From Methylobacter sp. S3L5C (GTDB taxonomy: Bacteria; Pseudomonadota; Gammaproteobacteria; Methylococcales; Methylomonadaceae), in the NCBI RefSeq assembly GCF_022788635.1, contig NZ_CP076024.1, positions 1,240,001 to 1,304,000 of the forward strand: DNA of 64,000 bases. The letters run 5' to 3'. How positions within the stretch are numbered: position 1 is the first letter of the stretch; every line of letters starts with the position of its first letter. This document shows positions 10,789-55,938 of the stretch, piece after piece. Both the position numbers and the translations under genes were made by a program. The notes beneath the pieces were generated by a model. It saw only the letters and a list, made by a program, of their open reading frames with translations. It was not told the DNA's origin and did not search any database.

Positions 10789-10862
10789 TTATATTCTCCT
10801 TTTATTGTGAAAAAGCAGCCAGATTTACTGTCTACCCCAAATTTTTTTATTGGTTAACCCAA

Positions 10863-10922
10863 GGTGGTTTCCTGCGAATAATATACCCCTGCTTGCTGGT
10901 TTTTTTATTCTTGGATATTACC
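10863..10922. repeat. MITE-like element 1, short deletion copy
   Basis: GGTGGTTTCCTGCGAATAAT at the left, and the complement of AGGTAATATCCAAGAATA at the right, match the imperfect terminal repeats of the longer copies at 29709-29896 and 47486-47590. The shared TATACCC...GCTTGCTGG stretch is identical to that of the 29.7-kb copy. About 60 bp; it lacks the centre. Confidence 0.6.
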
Positions 10923-11080
10923 TAAAAAGTTTGGTTAACGGGTTAATATACCATTCACTCTGATGTATGCAAGGGCGAGTGCAAGGTTTAAATATCGAAA
11001 TGCCCCAAATTATTATTGTCCGCTGCGTCCGACAGATACACTATAAGGTGTGGTTTTACCGGTTGCCAAATTGGTCGCAT

Positions 11081-14748: not shown

Positions 14749-15496
14749 ATAGGTTATCTTTAAAAGAACGCTTTCAGCTGAGCCGCTTTTTTAGTGGCGA
14801 GAAAGCCGTTGATGAGCCGGTAAAATTAACGCATCGACGTATCTTTATTTTACCCACTTATCGGGGAATTAACTTTGCCATACTGACGGCTTTGCTATTG
14901 TTGATGGCCTTTGTTTATAACAATAACCTGGTCTATCTACTGACTTTTTTATTGGCCAGTATTTTTTTTATTACCATTTTGCATAGTTATAAAGCGCTGG
15001 CGGGTCTGGTTTTACAAAAAGGACAGAGCAAGCCGGTTTTTGCCGGAGAAGCTGCCGGGTTTACTATTTATATAAATAATCCGGTTGATGTGGAGCGTTT
15101 TAATTTACAGATTAAACTGCAACAACCCGAAAGCCTTACCATTAAGCCGCAAAGCAAGACCTGCCTAACCCTGTATTCTTTAACGCAAAAAAGAGGCTGG
15201 CACACAGCCGGAACAGTAACCCTTTCCAGTACCTATCCATTCGGTTTATTTCGGGTCTGGTCGCCGGTACGCTTTAATCTTAAAGCTCTGGTTTATCCAA
15301 AACCATCGCTACAAGAACGGCCCTTTCCAGAAATGCCTTCAACTACTGTCAATAAAGGTTTTAGCCAGAAGGGGGCGGATGATTTTTATGGCTTAAAGAG
15401 CTATCAGCCAGGAGATTCCATTAAACACATACACTGGAAAGCCTTTGCCAAAGGGCAGGGTTTATTCAGTAAACAATAGACATCTTTCCTAAATAA

Positions 15497-15524
15497 TTGA
15501 CATAGAATTTGGCTTTGATAGGGT
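15497..15524 (+). promoter_or_regulatory. Candidate transposase promoter in the 932-bp IS
   Basis: TTGACA (15497-15502) is separated by 16 bases from TAGGGT (15519-15524), with an upstream TG giving an extended -10 (TGATAGGGT). It lies about 37 bases ahead of the transposase ATG at 15561. The same sequence is present in all copies. Confidence 0.45.
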
Positions 15525-15560
15525 TAAAATAGCGATCTACCTCTGAAAACACGGATAGCC

Positions 15561-16398
15561 ATGACTCCTTATGCCCAATTGCCAAGACACAAGCCTGAAG
15601 AATTTTTAAGGACTGTCGGCCTGTCACCAGAAGATTTTCTGCATCTTCACGGTAAGCTGGTGACTTACCTGGACGAACAAAAAGTCCTTAATCCACTGAC
15701 TAGACGGGGACGAAAAGACTCCAAGATGGCTTTGGAAGACCGCTTGTTACTGACACTCTATTATCTTCGTCACTATCCGACGTTGATAAATCTGGCTGCG
15801 GTCTTCGACATCAGCGAATCGTATTGCCATAAAATCTATACTCGCACTGTAAGACTATTGATCAAAATCGAAAAACTGCCCAACCGCAAAGCACTGTTGG
15901 AAGATCCCGCAGCTACCGTGGTCATTGATGTTTCGGAGCAGCCTATCGAGCGCCCTGTTAAAAACCAGAAAGCGTACTTTTCAGGAAAAAAAACGCCACA
16001 CGATCAAAGTCCAACTCGTGATCTGCCTATTGACGATGACTATACTCTCCGTAGTGATAGGTAAAGGTCAACAGCATGATTTTTCGATCTTCAAAGATAG
16101 CCGTCTATTGTTACATCCTGATGCCCTGTTGTTGGCGGATTCCGGATACCAAGGGATAAAGAAACACCATCAGAACTCGACTCTACCGGTTAAAAAGAAA
16201 AAAGGCCAACCGCTTTCGGCAGAAGACAAAGCCGATAATAAGGCACTATCAAAACAGCGTATTTTTATTGAGCATGTTAATCGCCGATGCAAAATTTTCA
16301 GGATTGCCAAAGATGTTTATCGGGGCAAACACAAGCATTACTCCTTGACATGGAATTTAGTGGCTGCTCTTGTTAACTTACGCTATGGCTGTATTTAG
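15561..16398 (+). CDS. IS5-family transposase in two overlapping frames (copy 1)
   Basis: Frame 1 (15561-16064, 167 aa) begins MTPYAQLPRHKPEEFLRTVG. It contains a helix-turn-helix-like region (LINLAAVFDISESYCHKIYT) and the first catalytic Asp in VVIDVSEQPIERP. Frame 2 (open from 15925 to 16398) contains the second Asp in LLLADSGYQGIKKHH and the Glu in IFIEHVNRRCKIFR. The frames join at the A8 run after TTTTCAGG (about 15981-15990). Skipping one base there yields SGKKRHTIKVQ, the expected transposase continuity, for a product of about 278 residues. All three copies show the same arrangement, which argues for a programmed +1/-2 shift or spread of one defective master copy. Confidence 0.85.
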
Positions 16399-16628
16399 GA
16401 AAGATGTCTAATATAGTAGCGATAGTTCAGAGGAAATCTGGTTGAATTACGATAATGCCCCCGGACATAATACCGAAGAACGCTTAAGCCAGTTATGCCG
16501 GTGGGTTATTGATGCCGAGCGTATGGGAATACCCTATGGGTTTTCTCTGCCCGGATTAAAGTTGTCGCCGGATAATGGTATGGCACACACCAGAAAGTGT
16601 CTGGAAGCACTCGCCCTGTTTTAAAAGC

Positions 16629-23293: not shown

Positions 23294-23325
23294 ATGACCA
23301 AGAAATTAATAGTAGCTTTGATAAT

Positions 23326-24257
23326 AGACATCTTTCCTAAATAATTGACATAGAATTTGGCTTTGATAGGGTTAAAATAGCGATCTACCTCTGAAAACAC
23401 GGATAGCCATGACTCCTTATGCCCAATTGCCAAGACACAAGCCTGAAGAATTTTTAAGGACTGTCGGCCTGTCACCAGAAGATTTTCTGCATCTTCACGG
23501 TAAGCTGGTGACTTACCTGGACGAACAAAAAGTCCTTAATCCACTGACTAGACGGGGACGAAAAGACTCCAAGATGGCTTTGGAAGACCGCTTGTTACTG
23601 ACACTCTATTATCTTCGTCACTATCCGACGTTGATAAATCTGGCTGCGGTCTTCGACATCAGCGAATCGTATTGCCATAAAATCTATACTCGCACTGTAA
23701 GACTATTGATCAAAATCGAAAAACTGCCCAACCGCAAAGCACTGTTGGAAGATCCCGCAGCTACCGTGGTCATTGATGTTTCGGAGCAGCCTATCGAGCG
23801 CCCTGTTAAAAACCAGAAAGCGTACTTTTCAGGAAAAAAAACGCCACACGATCAAAGTCCAACTCGTGATCTGCCTATTGACGATGACTATACTCTCCGT
23901 AGTGATAGGTAAAGGTCAACAGCATGATTTTTCGATCTTCAAAGATAGCCGTCTATTGTTACATCCTGATGCCCTGTTGTTGGCGGATTCCGGATACCAA
24001 GGGATAAAGAAACACCATCAGAACTCGACTCTACCGGTTAAAAAGAAAAAAGGCCAACCGCTTTCGGCAGAAGACAAAGCCGATAATAAGGCACTATCAA
24101 AACAGCGTATTTTTATTGAGCATGTTAATCGCCGATGCAAAATTTTCAGGATTGCCAAAGATGTTTATCGGGGCAAACACAAGCATTACTCCTTGACATG
24201 GAATTTAGTGGCTGCTCTTGTTAACTTACGCTATGGCTGTATTTAGGAAAGATGTCT
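23326..24257 (+). mobile_element. IS5-family (ISL2-like) insertion sequence, copy 2 (932 bp)
   Basis: Same ends and length as copy 1, with AAT at 23323-23325 and 24258-24260. It inserted within codons for the signal peptide of the PEP-CTERM-like gene, in the same orientation. Confidence 0.92.
23409..24246 (+). CDS. IS5-family transposase in two overlapping frames (copy 2)
   Basis: Frame 1 spans 23409-23912 and frame 2 is open 23773-24246. The encoded sequences are the same as in copy 1, including the A8 frame junction, so the same shift would be needed for a full DDE protein. The catalytic residues are as described for copy 1. Confidence 0.85.
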
Positions 24258-24790
24258 AATGTTTGTCGGATTTGTAGAAGCCCAAGCATCCAATTTGGTA
24301 AATAACGGGGATTTCAGTCAAGGTGCCACAGGTTGGACAATAATCAGTCCAATCCATAATTATGGATTGAGTGCTCAAGGCTGGTATGACGGCGCGTATA
24401 AAAACAATCCCGATACTTTTTCTCAAGCTATAAACACAATAGCAGGAGATAAATATACATTATCCTATACGTTCTCCACAGTGACAAATCAAGCAGGTTT
24501 GATTTTCAAATCTATATGGAATGGTACCGCGATTCAGACAATTACAACTCCTAACACGACTCCCACAACATATACTTTCACTGATCTACTTGCCACGAGT
24601 AATTCTACAGTGCTAAGTTTCGTAAGTGGGAACGATCCCTATTTTAACCTTCTGCAAAATATCAGTTTGACACAACAACCTTCAGCAGTACCCGTTCCAG
24701 CAGCAATCTGGATGTTTGCTACTGGCTTGCTGGGCTTTGGTGCAATGCGTAAAAAGGTTCAAGCTTAAAACTGATATTACGCCAAGGATT

Positions 24791-29704: not shown

Positions 29705-29708
29705 CTTA

Positions 29709-29896
29709 GGTGATTTCCCGAGAATAATATACCCAGCTTGCTGGTTTTTTTATTCATTTATTGCGTTGTCAAAATAGTTACGTAGCCAGCTACGCGCCTA
29801 TTTTTTCGCCTCGGCAACTGCTTCTGCATCTTTGCGGTCGTTGTAAATAAACAAAAATCCTGTGCCACTTGGGCATATTAATTTTCGGATATTTGC
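29709..29896. repeat. MITE-like element 1, long copy (188 bp)
   Basis: The left end GGTGATTTCCCGAGAATAAT and the right end are imperfect inverted repeats, flanked by TTA at 29706-29708 and 29897-29899. The right portion (CTGTGCCACTTGGGC...) matches the copy at 47486-47590. No coding capacity. Confidence 0.65.
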
Positions 29897-29936
29897 TTAG
29901 GCATTTTGTTCCCTCCGGTTATAGTTTTTATAACAT

Positions 29937-40044: not shown

Positions 40045-43000
40045 ATGAAAGTCATTGATTATTTATTCAACCGCAATCAGCAACACGAGAACACCCAATT
40101 TCAATTGTTTTTTGAAAAAACCAGTAATGGACTCATATTCTTTAATGCCAATTTGGTGATTTCTAAAGTCAGTTTGTCGGCAGCCAAACTATTCCAACAA
40201 CATCAACAGGTTTTTGAAAAATTGATGCCGGATTTTAATATTCAGCATCTTGTCGATACGCGTATTGACAGTTTTACAACTATTCCTGCCCAAGTCTTTT
40301 TGGAACTATATAAGGAACATAAAAGCTGGGCCAAGATGATGTCGTTGGGAGAGGAGACTTTTCATGTTTCGCTGTTACCGTTCGTTAATGAGTACGGTAT
40401 TTTTAAAGGCGGAGTACTCGAATTTTGGTATGCAACGGAATATTTGAAGTTGGAAGTTGAGGCCGACAGATCAAAATCGGTACTCCACAATATGGTGACG
40501 CCGGTTATGACTTGCGATTTAGAACGACGAATTACCTCAACCAATCCGTCGCTAATAAAACTATTAAACCAATATAAAACAGAGCTGCAAAAAGTTTTTC
40601 CCGGTTTTGATCCTGAGCGGCTAATAGGCGTTTGTATAGATAGTTTTCATCGTAACCCGGAGATGCAAAAACGTATTTTTGCCGATCCAGGTAAAATGCC
40701 GCATAAAGCAACCATCCAGGTTTTGGATATGTCGTTTAATTTAACTGTTTTTCCCGTGCTGGATAAACAAAACAATATTAATGGCTATGCGGTGGAATGG
40801 GTTGACTGCACTACAGAAGCAAAAGCCAATGTTGAAATTAAACGTGTAACCAGTGCTGCTATCGTCGGAGAACTCAGTGAACGTATCAATACTACTGAAC
40901 TGAGTGGAGCGGTCAAAGATTTTGGGGATTCGGTTAATCAGATGTTGGATGCCATTCTCCTACCAATTGGTGAAGGTAATCGTATTTTGCGTATGATTAG
41001 GGGTGGTGATTTAAGTCAGCGAGTAGAAATAGAGTGCAAAGGCGACCATGACAAGATGAAACAGGCTGTTAATGGTGTGCATAGTTGGCTATCCGATTTG
41101 ATTGCTTATGTCACCCAGCTTGCCAATGGCGATATGACTGCAGAAATGGGGAAAGCGTCTAACGACGACCAAATACACGAATGGCTGATATTGCTTAAGC
41201 TCAATATTCAGGCTTTGGTGGCAGATGCTGCCATACTTTCCATGGCTGCCGTTGAGGGGCGGCTGGAAACCCGTGCCGATGCGGGCAAACATCAGGGTGA
41301 TTTCCGCAAGATTGTCGAAGGTGTCAATAACACGCTGGATGCCGTGATTGGTCCGTTGAATGTTGCTGCGAATTATGTTGATAATATTGCCAACGGCAAT
41401 ATCCCGGCCAAGATCACCGATACTTATAATGGTGATTTTAATATTATTAAAAACAACCTCAATACCTGTATCGATGCAGTTAATGCTCTGGTTGCTGATG
41501 CTAATTTATTATCGATAGCCGCTGTTGAAGGCCGTTTGGCCACCCGTGCCGATGCGGGCAAACATCAGGGTGATTTCCGCAAGATTGTCGAAGGTGTCAA
41601 TAACACGCTGGATGCCGTGATTGATCCGCTGAATGTTGCTGCAAATTATGTTGATAATATTGCCAACGGCAATATCCCGGCCAAGATCACCGATACTTAT
41701 AATGGTGATTTTAATATTATTAAAAACAACCTCAATACCTGTATCGATGCAGTTAATGCTCTGGTTGCTGATGCTAATTTATTATCGATAGCCGCTGTTG
41801 AAGGCCGTTTGGCCACCCGTGCCGATGCGGGCAAACATCAGGGTGATTTCCGCAAGATTGTCGAAGGTGTCAATAACACGCTGGATGCCGTGATTGATCC
41901 GCTGAATGTTGCTGCAAATTATGTTGATAATATTGCCAACGGTAATATCCCGGCCAAGATCACCGATACTTATAATGGTGATTTTAATATTATTAAAAAT
42001 AACCTCAATACCTGTATCGATGCAGTTAATGCTCTGGTTGCTGATGCTAATTTATTATCCATAGCCGCTGTTGAAGGCCGGTTGGCTACCCGTGCCGATG
42101 CCAGTAAACATCAAGGTGATTACCGCAAGATTGTCGAAGGTGTTAATGGCACGCTGGATGCCGTGATTGGACCGTTGAATATTGCTGCCAACTATGTGGA
42201 GCGTATATCCAAAGGGGATACACCGCCTAAAATTACCGATTCTTATAACGGTGATTTCAACAACATAAAGAACAACCTCAATCAGGCTATCGATGCCATC
42301 AATGAGCAGGCAACTGCAGCCCAAGGCATTGCAGGAGGTGACTTGTCAGTCAAGGTCAATGTCCGTTCGGAAAATGATGTTGTGGCCAAGAGTTTGGAAC
42401 TGGTACGTGATAATCTAAAAGCCGTTATAGACGACACGGATAGTCTGATCAAAGCGGCTGCCGAAGGCCTGCTGGATATTCGTGCCGATGCCTCCAAACA
42501 TCAGGGCGATTTCAGTAAATTGGTCGCAGGTATTAATAAAACCCTTGATGGAATCATTCTTCCGGTTAATGAAACCGTAGCAGTACTTTCTGCGCTGGAG
42601 ACCGGCGATCTTACTAAATCTGTTATTGGTGATTACAAGGGGCAGCTTAAAGATTTTAAAGATACCGTCAACAACACGATTGCCAAACTTGCGCAAGTGA
42701 TTGCCCAAGTCAATAGTGCTGCGTACAGTATAGCCTCGGCTAGTGAAGAGGTCTCTGCTACCGCACAAAATATGTCACAAGCGACCAGTGAACAAGCCGC
42801 CTCGGTGGAGGAAACCAGCTCTTCCATTGAAGAAATGTCTGCTTCCATCAACCAGAATACTGAAAATGCCAAAGTTACCGAAGGTATGGCTACCCAAGCT
42901 AGTAGCGATGCAGTACAAGGCGGTACAGCCGTTAAAGATACCGTAAGTGCAATGAAAAGTATCGCCGGAAAAATTGGCATCATCGATGATATCGCTTATC

Positions 43001-43515
43001 AGACCAATTTATTGGCTTTGAACGCGGCGATTGAAGCCGCACGTGCCGGTGAGCACGGCCGCGGGTTTGCGGTTGTCGCTGCCGAAGTGCGTAAACTTGC
43101 CGAACGTAGCCAGGTTGCCGCACAGGAAATTGGCGAACTTGCTTCCAGCAGTGTCGAGATGGCGGAAAGCGCCGGTAAGCTTTTGGATACCATCGTACCC
43201 GCTATCAAGAAAACGTCCGATCTGGTACAGGAAATCGCGGCTGCTTCTGAAGAGCAATCGTCAGGCGCCGCCCAAATTAACACAGCTATGAATCAGCTCA
43301 ACCAGATTACCCAGCAGAATGCCAGTTCCTCGGAAGAGTTGGCCGCTACTTCGGAAGAGATGAGCGGACAGGCCATGCAATTGCAAGAAATTATGGCATT
43401 TTTTACCGTGGCCGGTAGCGAAGGCGAGGTATTGTCTAAGGCCTCTAAACCTGCGGTAAAAAAAATGAAGATTATAAAAGAGACACCTAATGAAGCTCAA
43501 TTCGTCAGGTTTTAG
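40045..43515 (+). CDS. Soluble PAS-containing chemoreceptor with tandem HAMP-like units
   Basis: 1156 residues, no membrane helix, so cytoplasmic. Two PAS-like domains (about 22-140 and 145-260; first ends [15 protein letters not shown], second ends [15 protein letters not shown]) are followed by HAMP-like segments. Residues about 392-755 are four tandem 91-residue units ([20 protein letters not shown]..., [38 protein letters not shown]). One more partial unit follows, then a methylation/signalling region with tip [19 protein letters not shown] and [20 protein letters not shown]. The C-terminus NEAQFVRF fits the CheR-tether consensus x-[HFYW]-x-x-[HFYW]. A CheW gene starts 9 bases later. It probably reports an intracellular redox, energy or small-molecule state. 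Confidence 0.9.
41218..42309 (+). repeat. Four tandem 273-bp units (91-residue HAMP-like repeats) in the soluble receptor gene
   Basis: Unit starts at 41218, 41491, 41764 and 42037, each exactly 273 bp apart. The second and third are nearly identical at the DNA level, the first differs mainly at its start, and the fourth diverges in its second half. Such DNA can expand or contract by recombination without breaking the frame. Confidence 0.9.
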
Positions 43516-43524
43516 GAGCGATGC

Positions 43525-44076
43525 ATGAATACGATGATACCCGCAACAAAGTCACTGTTAACTATAGCTGGCAGCCAAAATAAAGAAGAACGGCAGCAAT
43601 ATCTGACCTTTATGCTAAGTGGAGAACCTTATGCCATCAGCATATTGAGTATCAAGGAGATTTTGCAATATAGCCAACTGACGGAGGTGCCGCGAATGCC
43701 GGATTTTATTCGGGGTGTCATTAATCTGAGAGGGGTTGTGGTTCCTGTGATTGATCTGAGTGCCCGATTTGGTAAACAGCTCACTCATGTAGGCCGACGC
43801 AACTGTATTATTATCGTTGAAGTAGCTGTAGGCGAGGAAATTCAGAATGTTGGCGTTATGGTTGATGTTGTAAACGCTGTGCTGGAAATTCCCGCTCATG
43901 AGATCGAACCGGCGCCCTCGTTTGGTAGCAATATTCGAGCTGACTTTATCGCCGGTATGGGCAAGATTAATGACAAGTTAGTCATTATCTTGAATATTCA
44001 GCATGTACTGTCGATGGATGATATAGAGGTACTGGCTGGGGTGGCGTCAACTAGCGAATTGGTGACAGTGATATGA
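43525..44076 (+). CDS. cheW: CheW coupling protein (first copy)
   Basis: 183 residues with one CheW domain: YLTFMLSGEPYAISILSIKE, RMPDFIRGVINLRGVVVPVI, DLSARFGK and the second half NVGVMVDVVNAVLEIPAHEI. An N-terminal extension of about 25 residues precedes the core. It docks CheA to receptors. It lies 9 bases after the soluble receptor gene. A paralogue at 46895-47452 is about 75-80 per cent identical by eye and follows the second receptor in the same way, so the receptor-CheW unit appears duplicated. Confidence 0.93.
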   Translation: MNTMIPATKSLLTIAGSQNKEERQQYLTFMLSGEPYAISILSIKEILQYSQLTEVPRMPDFIRGVINLRGVVVPVIDLSARFGKQLTHVGRRNCIIIVEVAVGEEIQNVGVMVDVVNAVLEIPAHEIEPAPSFGSNIRADFIAGMGKINDKLVIILNIQHVLSMDDIEVLAGVASTSELVTVI

Positions 44077-44191
44077 CCTGTCATTTTTGGTATGAGATTA
44101 TCTTGGAAAGATAGTGTCGGCTGATACGGAATCTGTCACGGCATAAAAAGCAAACAGTTGTTATTTTTTAATTTATCCGAGAGTAAGTGAA

Positions 44192-46885
44192 ATGAAGGTT
44201 ACCGTTGCTAGAAAGATGATTTTGCTGGTATTTACTGGCATTTTGGGCCTGGTGATACTGTCTTTGTTTGGACAGAACAAGATGGATGTCGTTTATGAAA
44301 AAACCAATTATGCCAACGTCAACAGCATTCCCAGTATCGTGATGCTGGCCAAGGGTGTAGAGTCATTTGGCCGTTTGCGTGTCCGTGTATACCGTCATGT
44401 TTTGAATACTGATCCAAGCAAAATGATGGATATAGAAACACAGGTTAAAGAGGCACAGAATGGTGTCTTAAGCGCTCTTAAAGACTATGAAGGCGTAGTC
44501 TCAGACGATAAGGACAAACAGTTACTGGCTGATGATCTGGCTGATTTAAAAAAATACATCAGTGGCGTAGACAATACACTCAACTTGTCCCGCGATAACA
44601 AGAACGATCTGGCTCGTGATGCGCTGACACAAAATGCTGACCAGGCCGAAAGGACCAATGCTACGCTTAATGCTCACATGACATACAACGTTGATCTGGC
44701 AATGAAGGCATCCAATATCGCCGCCGCAACCAAAGTTGATGCGACACGAATGTCTACGATTATTGCGGCTTTTATTTTGCTGGCGACTGTGTTGATGGGT
44801 TGGTTTATTACTCGTGGTATTAGTCGGCCATTGAACGTAGCTTTGGATGTCGCCAATAACATTGCCAAAGGTGACCTGACCACTGATATTCAAGTCACCA
44901 GCACCGATGAAACCGGGCAGTTGCTTGGTGCCATGAAGCATATGTGTGACAGTATCAAAGCGATGGTAGCCGATGCCAACATGCTGGCTGTTGCTGCTTC
45001 CGAAGGCCGATTACAAACACGTGCCGATGCCGGTAAACATCAGGGTGATTACCGCATGATTGTCGAAGGTGTGAATAGCACGCTGGATGCCGTGATTGGG
45101 CCGTTGAACGTTGCCGCCGATTACGTCGAGAATATTGCCAACGGTAATATCCCCGTCAAGATCACCGATACTTATAACGGTGATTTTAATATTATTAAAA
45201 ATAACCTGAATACCTGTATCGACGCTATTAGCGCTTTGGTGAGTGATGCTAATTTATTATCCTTAGCGGCTGTCGAAGGCCGATTGGCAACCCGTGCCGA
45301 TGCAAGCAAACATCAGGGCGATTACCGCAAGATTGTCGAAGGCGTGAATAGCACGCTGGATGCCGTGATTGGGCCGTTGAACGTTGCCGCCGATTACGTC
45401 GAGAATATTGCCAACGGTAATATCCCGGTCAAGATCACCGATGCTTATAACGGTGATTTTAATATTATTAAAAATAACCTGAATACCTGTATCGACGCTA
45501 TTAGCGCTTTGGTGAGTGATGCTAATTTATTATTCTTAGCGGCTGTCGAAGGCCGATTGGCTACCCGTGCCGATGCAAGCAAACATCAGGGCGATTACCG
45601 CAAGATTGTCGAAGGCGTGAATAGCACGCTGGATGCCGTGATTGGGCCGTTGAACGTTGCCGCCGATTACGTCGAGAATATTGCCAACGGTAATATCCCG
45701 GTCAAGATCACCGATACTTATAACGGTGATTTTAATATTATTAAAAATAACCTGAATACCTGTATCGACGCTATTAGCGCTTTGGTGAGTGATGCTGATT
45801 TATTATCCTTAGCGGCTGTCGAAGGCCGATTGGCTACCCGTGCCGATGCAAGCAAACATCAGGGCGATTACCGCAAGATTGTTGAAGGCGTGAATAGCAC
45901 GCTGGATGCTGTGATTGGACCATTAAACGAAGCAGTAAAGGTTTTTGTTGCTATGGAGGCTGGTGATCTTACTAAAACTGTGAATGGAGATTACAACGGC
46001 CAGCTTAAAGATTTTAAAGAAACTATCAACAATACTATCACCAAACTTTCAGAAGTTATTAGTCAGGTTAATGGTGCTGCATACAATATAGCCTCTGCCA
46101 GTGAAGAGGTATCTGCTACCGCACAAAGCATGTCACAAGCGACCAGTGAACAAGCATCGTCCGTTGAAGAAACCAGTGCTTCCATTGAAGAAATGTCGGC
46201 TTCTATCGATCAAAATACTGAAAATGCCAAAGTTACCGAAGGTATGGCTACCCAAGCCAGTAGCGATGCCGTACAAGGGGGGAGTGCCGTTAAAGAGACT
46301 GTGAGCGCGATGAAGAGTATTGCCGGAAAAATTGGCATTATCGACGATATCGCTTATCAGACCAATTTATTGGCTTTGAACGCGGCGATTGAAGCTGCAC
46401 GCGCCGGGGAGCATGGTCGCGGGTTTGCGGTCGTCGCTGCCGAAGTGCGTAAACTGGCCGAACGTAGCCAAGTTGCCGCACAGGAAATTGGCGAACTTGC
46501 CTCCAGCAGTGTCGAGATGGCGGAAAGCGCCGGCAAGCTTCTGGATACCATTGTGCCTTCAATTAAGAAAACTTCCGATTTAGTACAGGAAATCGCTGCC
46601 GCTTCTGAAGAGCAATCATCCGGTGCCGCCCAAATCAATACAGCAATGGATCAGCTTAATAAAATCACCCAGCAGAATGCCAGTGCATCGGAAGAATTGG
46701 CTGCTACTTCGGAAGAAATGAGCGGACAGGCCATGCAATTGCAAGAGTTGATGGCATTTTTTACCGTGGCTGATAGTGGAGGCACAATGTCAGTGACTTC
46801 CAATACAATGCCATTTAAACCGGCCGTAAAAAAAATGGGCGAGGAAAATCAAGCACCAAACGAAGCTGAATTTGTCAGGTTTTAG
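44192..46885 (+). CDS. Membrane chemoreceptor with tandem HAMP-like units
   Basis: 897 residues. The first helix ([19 protein letters not shown]) leads into a periplasmic four-helix bundle (about 32-185: [40 protein letters not shown]) and the second helix [21 protein letters not shown] membrane-proximal HAMP ([20 protein letters not shown]) precedes three full and one partial 91-residue HAMP-like units (about 259-580). The signalling domain matches that of the soluble receptor, with tip [19 protein letters not shown]. It ends NEAEFVRF, a CheR-tether-like pentapeptide. It likely binds small ligands in the periplasm, though the ligand is unknown. CheW starts 9 bases later. Confidence 0.93.
44966..45930 (+). 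repeat. Tandem 273-bp units in the membrane receptor gene
   Basis: Units start at 44966, 45239, 45512 and 45785, each 273 bp apart. The fourth is truncated near 45930, where the sequence turns into the adaptation region. The units resemble those at 41218-42309 but are closer to one another than to that set, pointing to concerted evolution within each gene. Confidence 0.88.
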
Positions 46886-47452: not shown

Positions 47453-47485
47453 CTACATCGATTTTATTAATTAATAAGGCTGTTA

Positions 47486-47590
47486 GGTGATTTTCTGCGA
47501 ATAATATATCCGGCTACGCGCTTATTTTTGCATTGTGTAAAAAAACAAGAATTCTGAGCCACTTGGGACTATTAATTTCTGTATATCACC
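47486..47590. repeat. MITE-like element 1, 105-bp copy
   Basis: GGTGATTTTCTGCGAATAAT at the left and, inverted, GGTGATATACAGAAATTAAT at the right, flanked by TTA on both sides (47483-47485 and 47591-47593). Related copies: 10863-10922 and 29709-29896. It sits between cheW and cheR inside the operon. Confidence 0.7.
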
Positions 47591-47663
47591 TTAAGTCGAA
47601 AATAATCGTGCGTGAAAAATCTTCCTGAACAATGATATCTAATACCAATATATAAAATTAAAA

Positions 47664-54551: not shown

Positions 54552-54843
54552 ATTTTTGTCCTGTAAAAGGGTTGCAAACCCCCAAGCGCAGACGTAACTT
54601 CATTATTGTGAGCAGTTACGGCTGTAAAAGTAATTATTAGATTACAATTATAGTGATTTTTTTTTGAATATTAACAGGATTTGCAGTTATTTGCTTACTT
54701 TTTAAATGTCATTGAAATTTTTAAGTGTGCCGATCAGAGTTACAAGCCTCGACTGACAGCGAAACTAAAGCTGATGGAAATTGAGATTACAGTGCAAGTT
54801 GACGTTTCCGACGGCTGATCATGCCAAGCCACTGCCAAACAAT

Positions 54844-55775
54844 AGACATCTTTCCTAAATACAGCCATAGCGTAAGTTAACAAGAGCAGCCACTAAATTC
54901 CATGTCAAGGAGTAATGCTTGTGTTTGCCCCGATAAACATCTTTGGCAATCCTGAAAATTTTGCATCGGCGATTAACATGCTCAATAAAAATACGCTGTT
55001 TTGATAGTGCCTTATTATCGGCTTTGTCTTCTGCCGAAAGCGGTTGGCCTTTTTTCTTTTTAACCGGTAGAGTCGAGTTCTGATGGTGTTTCTTTATCCC
55101 TTGGTATCCGGAATCCGCCAACAACAGGGCATCAGGATGTAACAATAGACGGCTATCTTTGAAGATCGAAAAATCATGCTGTTGACCTTTACCTATCACT
55201 ACGGAGAGTATAGTCATCGTCAATAGGCAGATCACGAGTTGGACTTTGATCGTGTGGCGTTTTTTTTCCTGAAAAGTACGCTTTCTGGTTTTTAACAGGG
55301 CGCTCGATAGGCTGCTCCGAAACATCAATGACCACGGTAGCTGCGGGATCTTCCAACAGTGCTTTGCGGTTGGGCAGTTTTTCGATTTTGATCAATAGTC
55401 TTACAGTGCGAGTATAGATTTTATGGCAATACGATTCGCTGATGTCGAAGACCGCAGCCAGATTTATCAACGTCGGATAGTGACGAAGATAATAGAGTGT
55501 CAGTAACAAGCGGTCTTCCAAAGCCATCTTGGAGTCTTTTCGTCCCCGTCTAGTCAGTGGATTAAGGACTTTTTGTTCGTCCAGGTAAGTCACCAGCTTA
55601 CCGTGAAGATGCAGAAAATCTTCTGGTGACAGGCCGACAGTCCTTAAAAATTCTTCAGGCTTGTGTCTTGGCAATTGGGCATAAGGAGTCATGGCTATCC
55701 GTGTTTTCAGAGGTAGATCGCTATTTTAACCCTATCAAAGCCAAATTCTATGTCAATTATTTAGGAAAGATGTCT
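54844..55775 (-). mobile_element. IS5-family (ISL2-like) insertion sequence, copy 3 (932 bp, inverted)
   Basis: Same ends and length as copies 1 and 2 but in opposite orientation, with AAT at 54841-54843 and 55776-55778. It lies in the C-terminal coding part of the decayed PEP-CTERM-like gene. Confidence 0.92.
54855..55692 (-). CDS. IS5-family transposase in two overlapping frames (copy 3)
   Basis: Frame 1 is 55692-55189 and frame 2 is open 55328-54855 on the minus strand, giving the same protein pieces as in copy 1. The A8/T8 frame junction is preserved. Catalytic residues are as described for copy 1. Confidence 0.85.
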
Positions 55776-55938
55776 AATAAGTATAGCTGCAGGTACCGGT
55801 ATGGAACTGGGAGTAGGGGGAGTGATGTTCACATAACTAATATCACCATAGCGGCTTGTGCCAGTTACCGTTTGTATAGAAGTATTATCCTATTTATAAT
55901 AGGAAAGATAAAGAGCATAGCCACCAGATGCATCTATA

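What the first reader, a model, noticed from the sequence alone, without database searches (positions are those of the whole stretch)
47486..47590. New MITE-like family with TTA-flanked, GGTGATWTWC-type ends
Seen: three copies of different size (60, 188 and 105 bp at 10863, 29709, 47486) with related ends. The two longer copies have TTA on both sides. One lies inside the che operon and one directly after namZ. Inference: non-autonomous elements moved by an IS5-like (T-N-A target) transposase.
Basis: partly seen in the sequence, partly recalled or inferred. Interest (0 to 1): 0.5.

Follow-up and report, generated by a model that had tools for sequence, protein, structure and literature searches.

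The report
Widespread hairpin MITE with conserved core
The three repeats belong to a real family of tiny jumping DNA elements that fold into a hairpin; the middle of the hairpin is conserved in very distantly related bacteria although the ends differ, which is unusual and suggests that the middle does something of its own.

Summary
Six insertion sites were aligned to empty sites in relatives. It is a genuine non-autonomous MITE of about 158 bp that duplicates TWA and folds into one long hairpin. Two of the window's copies are internal-deletion derivatives.

The unexpected part is the 95-nt centre. It shows strong compensatory change (153 two-sided cells against 47 in shuffles) and recurs in Methylococcales, Thiotrichales, Clostridia and other proteobacterial classes. 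In those other classes it sits in elements of 155-162 bp with TWAGG...CCTWA ends in 14 of 24 loci, but with other tip sequences. One relative (G022) has the same tips without the centre; another (G036) has the centre with different tips.

No autonomous partner was found, though every search was partial, so "IS5-like" is unproven. No Rfam family reaches its threshold over the element, and eight paper searches showed no description of it.

The parts
10860..10925 (+). 60-bp deletion derivative (10863-10922) with flanks CAA and TAA
   Evidence: matches profile positions 2-51, then the right tip
29706..29899 (+). 188-bp copy (29709-29896) with TTA on both sides; keeps the conserved centre, with an extra segment of about 30 bp in the right arm; right tip decayed
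29741..29829 (+). match of the conserved-centre model R1 inside the 188-bp copy
   Evidence: 58.5 bits, E 1.1e-10
47483..47593 (+). 105-bp deletion derivative (47486-47590) with TTA on both sides, between CheW-like and CheR-like ORFs
   Evidence: lacks profile positions 33-78

Best explanation
A non-autonomous DNA transposon (MITE) of about 158 bp that folds end to end into one imperfect hairpin. Shown: paired inverted tips, insertion at TWA with 3-bp duplication, empty sites in relatives, and internally deleted copies down to tip-only remnants. Inferred: it is moved in trans by a DDE-type transposase that reads the GG-starting tips; its gene is absent from, or was missed in, the genomes examined. 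The 95-nt centre is a separately conserved structured module (covarying stems plus fixed unpaired motifs CTKGTC, TTR/YGC and ATCCTGCGC) shared across proteobacterial classes and Clostridia. Its likeliest role, and this is inference, is a strand-neutral hairpin acting at DNA level, for instance binding a host or transposition factor, that helps the element persist.
For: 22 of 34 candidate tip pairs have identical 3-bp flanks; 15 of 16 pairs readable in the capped G013 list and 7 of 8 pairs in the complete G242 list also do, by my reading. Joined flanks match empty sites with 0-2 gap openings for six copies. A full copy folds with z -5.57, 0 of 200 shuffles. Centre: 92.5% of cells paired against 76.7% shuffled, 153 two-sided changes against 47.1, 0 of 500; collapse on sliding. 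Core-only model finds TWAGG...CCTWA ends in 14 of 24 loci of other classes, 56 of 20000 random places, 12 of the 14 with identical flanks. Orientation to codirectional genes is 9 same, 11 opposite (with strands), which does not favour a one-strand RNA role.
Against: No transposase found. Within the genus the centre is not clearly more conserved than the rest (apex 0.858, tips 0.90, stems 0.87-0.89, left box 0.956). 12 of 34 candidate pairs lack identical flanks (some of these pairs are chance or overlapping). The centre's function is untested. The 36 aligned centres were preselected for the three boxes.
Confidence: 0.7

Rival explanations
1. Structure recognition: the moving enzyme binds the conserved centre of the hairpin and cuts at a fixed distance of about 30 bp, so that tip sequences may drift as long as the two ends pair.
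For: Element length stays near 155-162 bp while tips change; centre conserved across phyla.
Against: Tips are well conserved within the genus (0.90, arms 0.82-0.84). G022 has copies with the same tips and TTA flanks but without the centre, although four of its seven loci share the sequence on the right and look like parts of one composite unit. Tip-only mini-elements with TWA flanks exist, which may however be deletions after insertion.
Confidence: 0.15
2. Functional RNA: the centre acts in transcripts, for example as a processing or termination hairpin that makes insertions in operons tolerable.
For: Conserved internal loops and covariation; 20 of 27 intergenic copies lie between codirectional genes; three positions are rich in G-U pairs.
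Against: No orientation bias, 9 against 11. Outside those three positions A-C mismatches outnumber G-U 22 to 11 (hand count), so no preference for one strand. No Rfam family at threshold.
Confidence: 0.12
3. The element is linked to Rpn/PD-(D/E)XK_2 putative transposases, as suggested for a MITE of Thiomargarita (PMC4853749, passages).
For: The published suggestion; overlap of taxa by recall.
Against: The element-rich genomes G000, G013, G034, G036 and G040 have no PF12784 match, while many element-free relatives do. Some element carriers (G001, G004, G022, G028) do have it.
Confidence: 0.02

Closest known systems
Bacterial hairpin MITEs such as Correia/NEMIS, ERIC (RU-1), Nezha, RUP and the bcr1 repeat (recalled, no sequence compared here)
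   Same: Short intergenic elements with inverted ends that fold into a hairpin; mostly no autonomous copy beside them
   Different: TWA duplication; a 95-nt centre at constant spacing in several proteobacterial classes and Clostridia under different tips. Those families are, as I recall, confined to narrow groups
IS5-family (IS1031-type) or PIF/Harbinger-like transposons (recalled)
   Same: 3-bp T-N-A target duplication, ends starting with G
   Different: No transposase linked to these tips was found, so the link is only by analogy
REP/BIME palindromes (PMC3733652, search listing and start of abstract only)
   Same: Palindromic and intergenic
   Different: REPs are 20-40 bp and tagged by GTAG or CGTC at one end; here about 158 bp, two paired ends and a target duplication
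MITEs of Ca. Thiomargarita nelsonii (PMC4853749, passages read)
   Same: Abundant hairpin MITEs in a related sulfur bacterium without an identified parent IS
   Different: Described with 10-bp direct repeats (hupL) or TATAG ends (dsrA); their sequences were in supplements that I could not read

Membership tests
MITE | short, no transposase gene, many dispersed copies | tested here: met
   26 to about 330 bp; 57 BLAST matches in the own genome
MITE | terminal inverted repeats | tested here: met
   34 candidate pairs of inward-facing tips
MITE | target-site duplication and empty sites | tested here: met
   22 of 34 pairs identical; six copies aligned to empty sites
MITE | autonomous relative with the same tips | tested here: inconclusive
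   none found; all searches partial
IS5-family mobilised element | 3-bp T-N-A duplication | tested here: met
   TTA or TAA in 21 of the 22 identical pairs
IS5-family mobilised element | IS5-family transposase carrying the same tips | tested here: inconclusive
   88 PF01609 matches in the own genome; only 30 loci from four genomes scanned, none with such tips
Rpn/PDDEXK_2-linked element | co-occurrence with PF12784 | tested here: not met
   0 matches in G000, G013, G034, G036, G040
Known Rfam RNA family | reaches the gathering score over the element | tested here: not met
   best over an element is MIR5380, 60.1 of 150 bits in L189, mainly by hairpin shape
REP/BIME | 20-40 bp palindrome without target duplication (recalled) | tested here: not met
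   about 158 bp with 3-bp duplications

The most novel reading that the evidence does not exclude
The 95-nt centre is a functional structured nucleic acid: a mobile non-coding module carried across bacterial classes and phyla by MITEs with different tips, and probably by different transposases, and kept by selection on its own fold instead of being inert filler between transposase binding sites.
Probability: 0.4. Interest if true: 0.82.

Novelty: new variant of a known kind. Interest (0 to 1): 0.6.

Why it matters
MITE interiors are usually treated as unconstrained filler and MITE families as local to a species or genus (recall). A 95-nt interior with constant length, covarying stems and fixed unpaired motifs in Gammaproteobacteria, other proteobacterial classes and Clostridia, under different tips, would be a very widely spread mobile non-coding module without an Rfam entry that I could find. 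It makes a direct question testable: what does this hairpin do, and which enzyme moves it?

Tried and rejected
Autonomous partner. Tip patterns in the own genome and G013, with 16 unpaired G013 tips and 4 own stretches read (the list was capped). 30 of the PF01609 loci of four genomes. Non-MITE tips in 201 family genomes: 5 places in 3 genomes, sequence seen for all five, ORFs listed for two, no transposase recognised. Bacillota tips: 12 stretches fetched, ORFs listed for two; the distant candidate pairs proved to be short elements. G036 TA-type tips: mostly 38-bp palindromic mini-elements; ORFs listed for L363 only. 40 contigs of G362, 494,551 of about 2.0 million bases. Nothing found; none of these is exhaustive.

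The copies at 3757247 and 3759727, in opposite orientation 2.3 kb apart, were checked as a possible long element: I recognised no transposase among the ORFs (by eye).

PD-(D/E)XK_2 link: disfavoured. A dif-like XerCD site at the apex (idea from recall): dropped because the apical stem and its spacing vary freely in other classes. attC: dropped, the end motifs point the other way (recall plus sequence). One-strand RNA selection: not supported (see rivals).

Literature: eight searches of open-licence PMC papers gave nothing that describes it; the fragment search matched 83 papers, 20 shown, all unrelated by title. PMC4666352 (passages) treats a different G/C-rich motif. PMC2267715 (abstract and outline only) reports 92 stem-loop families whose sequences I did not see, so an overlap is possible.

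Collections: no match for an own copy in plasmids, none for a Clostridia copy in plasmids and phages, none for the exact 24-nt pattern in viral contigs.

Weak parts: Bacteroidota loci share the 24-nt centre and in 4 of 8 the left box, but in 0 of 8 the right box; they score 26-45 bits with the model and one of the six tested (L238) was missed. The one Verrucomicrobiota match has neither box.

Full report
What is there. The 188-bp copy finds 57 matches in the 4.8-Mb own genome. A 25-base tip pattern with up to 3 mismatches finds 53 places against 0 for the reversed control. A profile from ten copies shows a typical element of about 158 bp; the 105-bp copy lacks profile positions 33-78 and the 60-bp copy matches positions 2-51 followed by the right tip. 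Shorter remnants occur: 33 bp with TTA on both sides at 1689625, 42 bp at 3678738 (flanks TAA/CGA), and 26 bp in G013.

Evidence that it moves. Of 34 candidate tip pairs in the pieces fetched, 22 have identical 3-bp flanks (14 TTA, 7 TAA, 1 CAA); a few of the other 12 pairs are chance or overlapping. By my reading, 15 of 16 pairs visible in the capped G013 list and 7 of 8 in the complete G242 list have identical TTA or TAA flanks. For 16 own copies I joined the flanks around one TWA and searched 35 genus genomes, the own genome included. Six copies were then aligned to contiguous matches in relatives, i.e. empty sites: 144858, 590525 and 2376049 in G034; 3200916 in G004, G007, G022, G028 and G031; 772748 in G004, G007 and G031; 1659512 in G028 (0 to 2 gap openings). 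At two of them the joined flanks read alike right at the junction: CCC-TTA-AGGAT for 2376049 and CAAT-TAA-CGA for 590525. Four more (1647678, 1689625, 1747861, 2321913) have matches that cross the junction but were not aligned. The remaining six, among them all three window copies, show no crossing match in the capped list.

Shape and place. A full copy folds as one long hairpin (-26.2 kcal/mol, z -5.57, 0 of 200 shuffles); the 105-bp copy does not fold better than chance (z -0.45, 63 of 200). In 29 full-length copies of the genus, mean identity is 0.90 in both tips, 0.82-0.84 in the neighbouring arms, 0.87-0.89 in the stems, 0.956 in the left box, 0.899 in the right box and 0.858 at the apex; so within the genus the centre does not stand out as a whole. 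Of 29 own copies examined for context, 27 are intergenic and 2 overlap only short ORFs; 20 of the 27 lie between codirectional ORFs, 4 between divergent and 3 between convergent ones. The element has the same direction as the genes 9 times and the opposite 11 times (strands).

The unexpected centre. In 61 genomes (own included) the DNA query matched 12, and G036, of another genus, was matched mostly in the middle. Of 110 distinct matches with enough flank, 67 are Pseudomonadota (41 Methylococcales, 21 Thiotrichales, 5 unassigned Gammaproteobacteria), 22 Bacillota (Clostridia), 8 Bacteroidota, 1 Verrucomicrobiota and 12 unassigned. Two motifs outside the pattern, CT(T/G)G(T/C)(C)TTTT on the left and AAAAATC(C/A) on the right, occur together in 24 of 67 Pseudomonadota, 13 of 22 Bacillota, 0 of 8 Bacteroidota and 4 of 12 unassigned matches; in shuffled flanks each occurs in under 1%. 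Eight genomes reached through such loci (seven Bacillota, one unassigned) carry 17 to 179 matches of the GGAACTGT tip pattern each, against 0 to 3 in the control. Many of these records are metagenome assemblies, but dozens of copies per genome speak against stray contamination.

Thirty-six centres align at 94-96 bases with 30 invariant columns. They were chosen: 51 of 125 matches passed a three-box filter, 49 unique, of which I used 26, leaving out the Bacteroidota and longer ones; the other ten come from the own genome and relatives. On 28 pairs 92.5% of cells are paired (76.7% in shuffles), 153 cells changed on both sides (47.1), 16 pairs with such a change (13.0, reached by 2 of 500 shuffles); for paired cells, two-sided cells and covariation score 0 of 500 shuffles reach the value, and sliding partners by 1-3 columns lowers paired cells to 40-49%. 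Related sequences can exceed shuffles without structure, as the tool warns; the slide control and the spread of pair types are the stronger evidence.

Independent test. The model R1 of the centre contains no tips. In 398 Pseudomonadota genomes it matched 20 at E<=1e-6: the own genome and 19 listed as other classes; no other sampled genome of the same class was matched. Of 28 fetched loci from those, 24 had enough sequence; 14 have TWAGG upstream and CCTWA downstream in the expected range (56 of 20000 random places do), 12 of the 14 with identical flanks, lengths 155-162 bp. Their tips (GGAGCC, GGGCCR, GGAACG, GGTAAC and others) differ from GGYGAT. Thirty control loci gave nothing below E 0.49. 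In 61 genomes the model matched 14, patchily: 35 in G000, 36 in G013, 50 in G034, 69 (the scoring cap) in G036, 18 in G040. Of 29 loci with the 24-nt pattern but not in the model, 28 were matched, Bacteroidota weakly.

Modularity. G022 has seven loci of a roughly 108-bp element with the GGTGATTTCC tip but no centre; six share an exact 30-base tip and five show TTA on both sides. Four of them share the sequence on the right and look like one composite unit of two such elements, so independent movement of the small element is only suggested. G036 carries the centre with TWAGG-type tips (L064, L307) and with TAAGTACCC-type tips (L308-L310, L312-L317), the latter most simply read as TA-flanked, which is ambiguous. 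So tips and centre are separable, and the centre needs its own explanation.

Mechanism. I judge it most likely that a trans-acting DDE transposase reads the tips and inserts at TWA; the IS5/PIF-type assignment rests only on the duplication (recall). For the centre, no orientation bias and mixed wobble counts (11 G-U against 22 A-C outside three G-U-rich positions, hand count) modestly favour a DNA-level hairpin over selection on one RNA strand, without excluding RNA.

Known or not. No Rfam family reaches gathering score over an element; a sub-threshold match to MIR5380 (60.1 of 150 bits) covers the element in L189, mainly by hairpin shape. No match in plasmids, phages or viral contigs. The eight paper searches showed no description; only open-licence papers were covered and supplements could not be read, so this is weak evidence of absence. 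The window's organism was not identified.

Noticed in passing
window 15477-16410, 23322-24265, 54836-55779: Three copies of a 934-944 bp repeat, 100% alike in the aligned arms, with ends like AATAGACATCTTTCCTAAATA: an IS with PF01609 matches and many more copies in the own genome.
   Followed up: partly
window 41202-46075: Two blocks of 273-bp repeat units (four copies each) inside long ORFs of the che region, e.g. ORF 44192-46885.
   Followed up: no
L086-L092 (G022): Coreless 108-bp element with the same tips; four loci share the right-hand sequence, suggesting a composite of two elements that spread together.
   Followed up: partly
L364-L376 (G036): 38-bp palindromes TAAGTACCCAAGTWAAATTAATTTWACTTGGGTACTTA at several places: recurrent deletion products or mobile mini-elements.
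   Followed up: partly
L191, L220, L230, L248, L286, L301; own long copies L008, L020, L027: Longer elements carry an extra segment in one arm (CTACATGGATGTAGG...AGCAGGAGC or its complement-like form), seemingly a second module.
   Followed up: no
G362, G386 (other proteobacterial classes): Many copies with identical model scores, several at contig ends: probably a recent burst and a good place to look for an active transposase.
   Followed up: partly
own genome 196805-209105: Eleven occurrences of TTAGTCGATATCCAGAGCA on one strand within 12 kb, probably repeats inside large genes.
   Followed up: no
relatives: PF12784 (PDDEXK_2) matches occur in 25 of 61 genomes but not in the most element-rich ones (G000, G013, G034, G036, G040).
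   Followed up: yes
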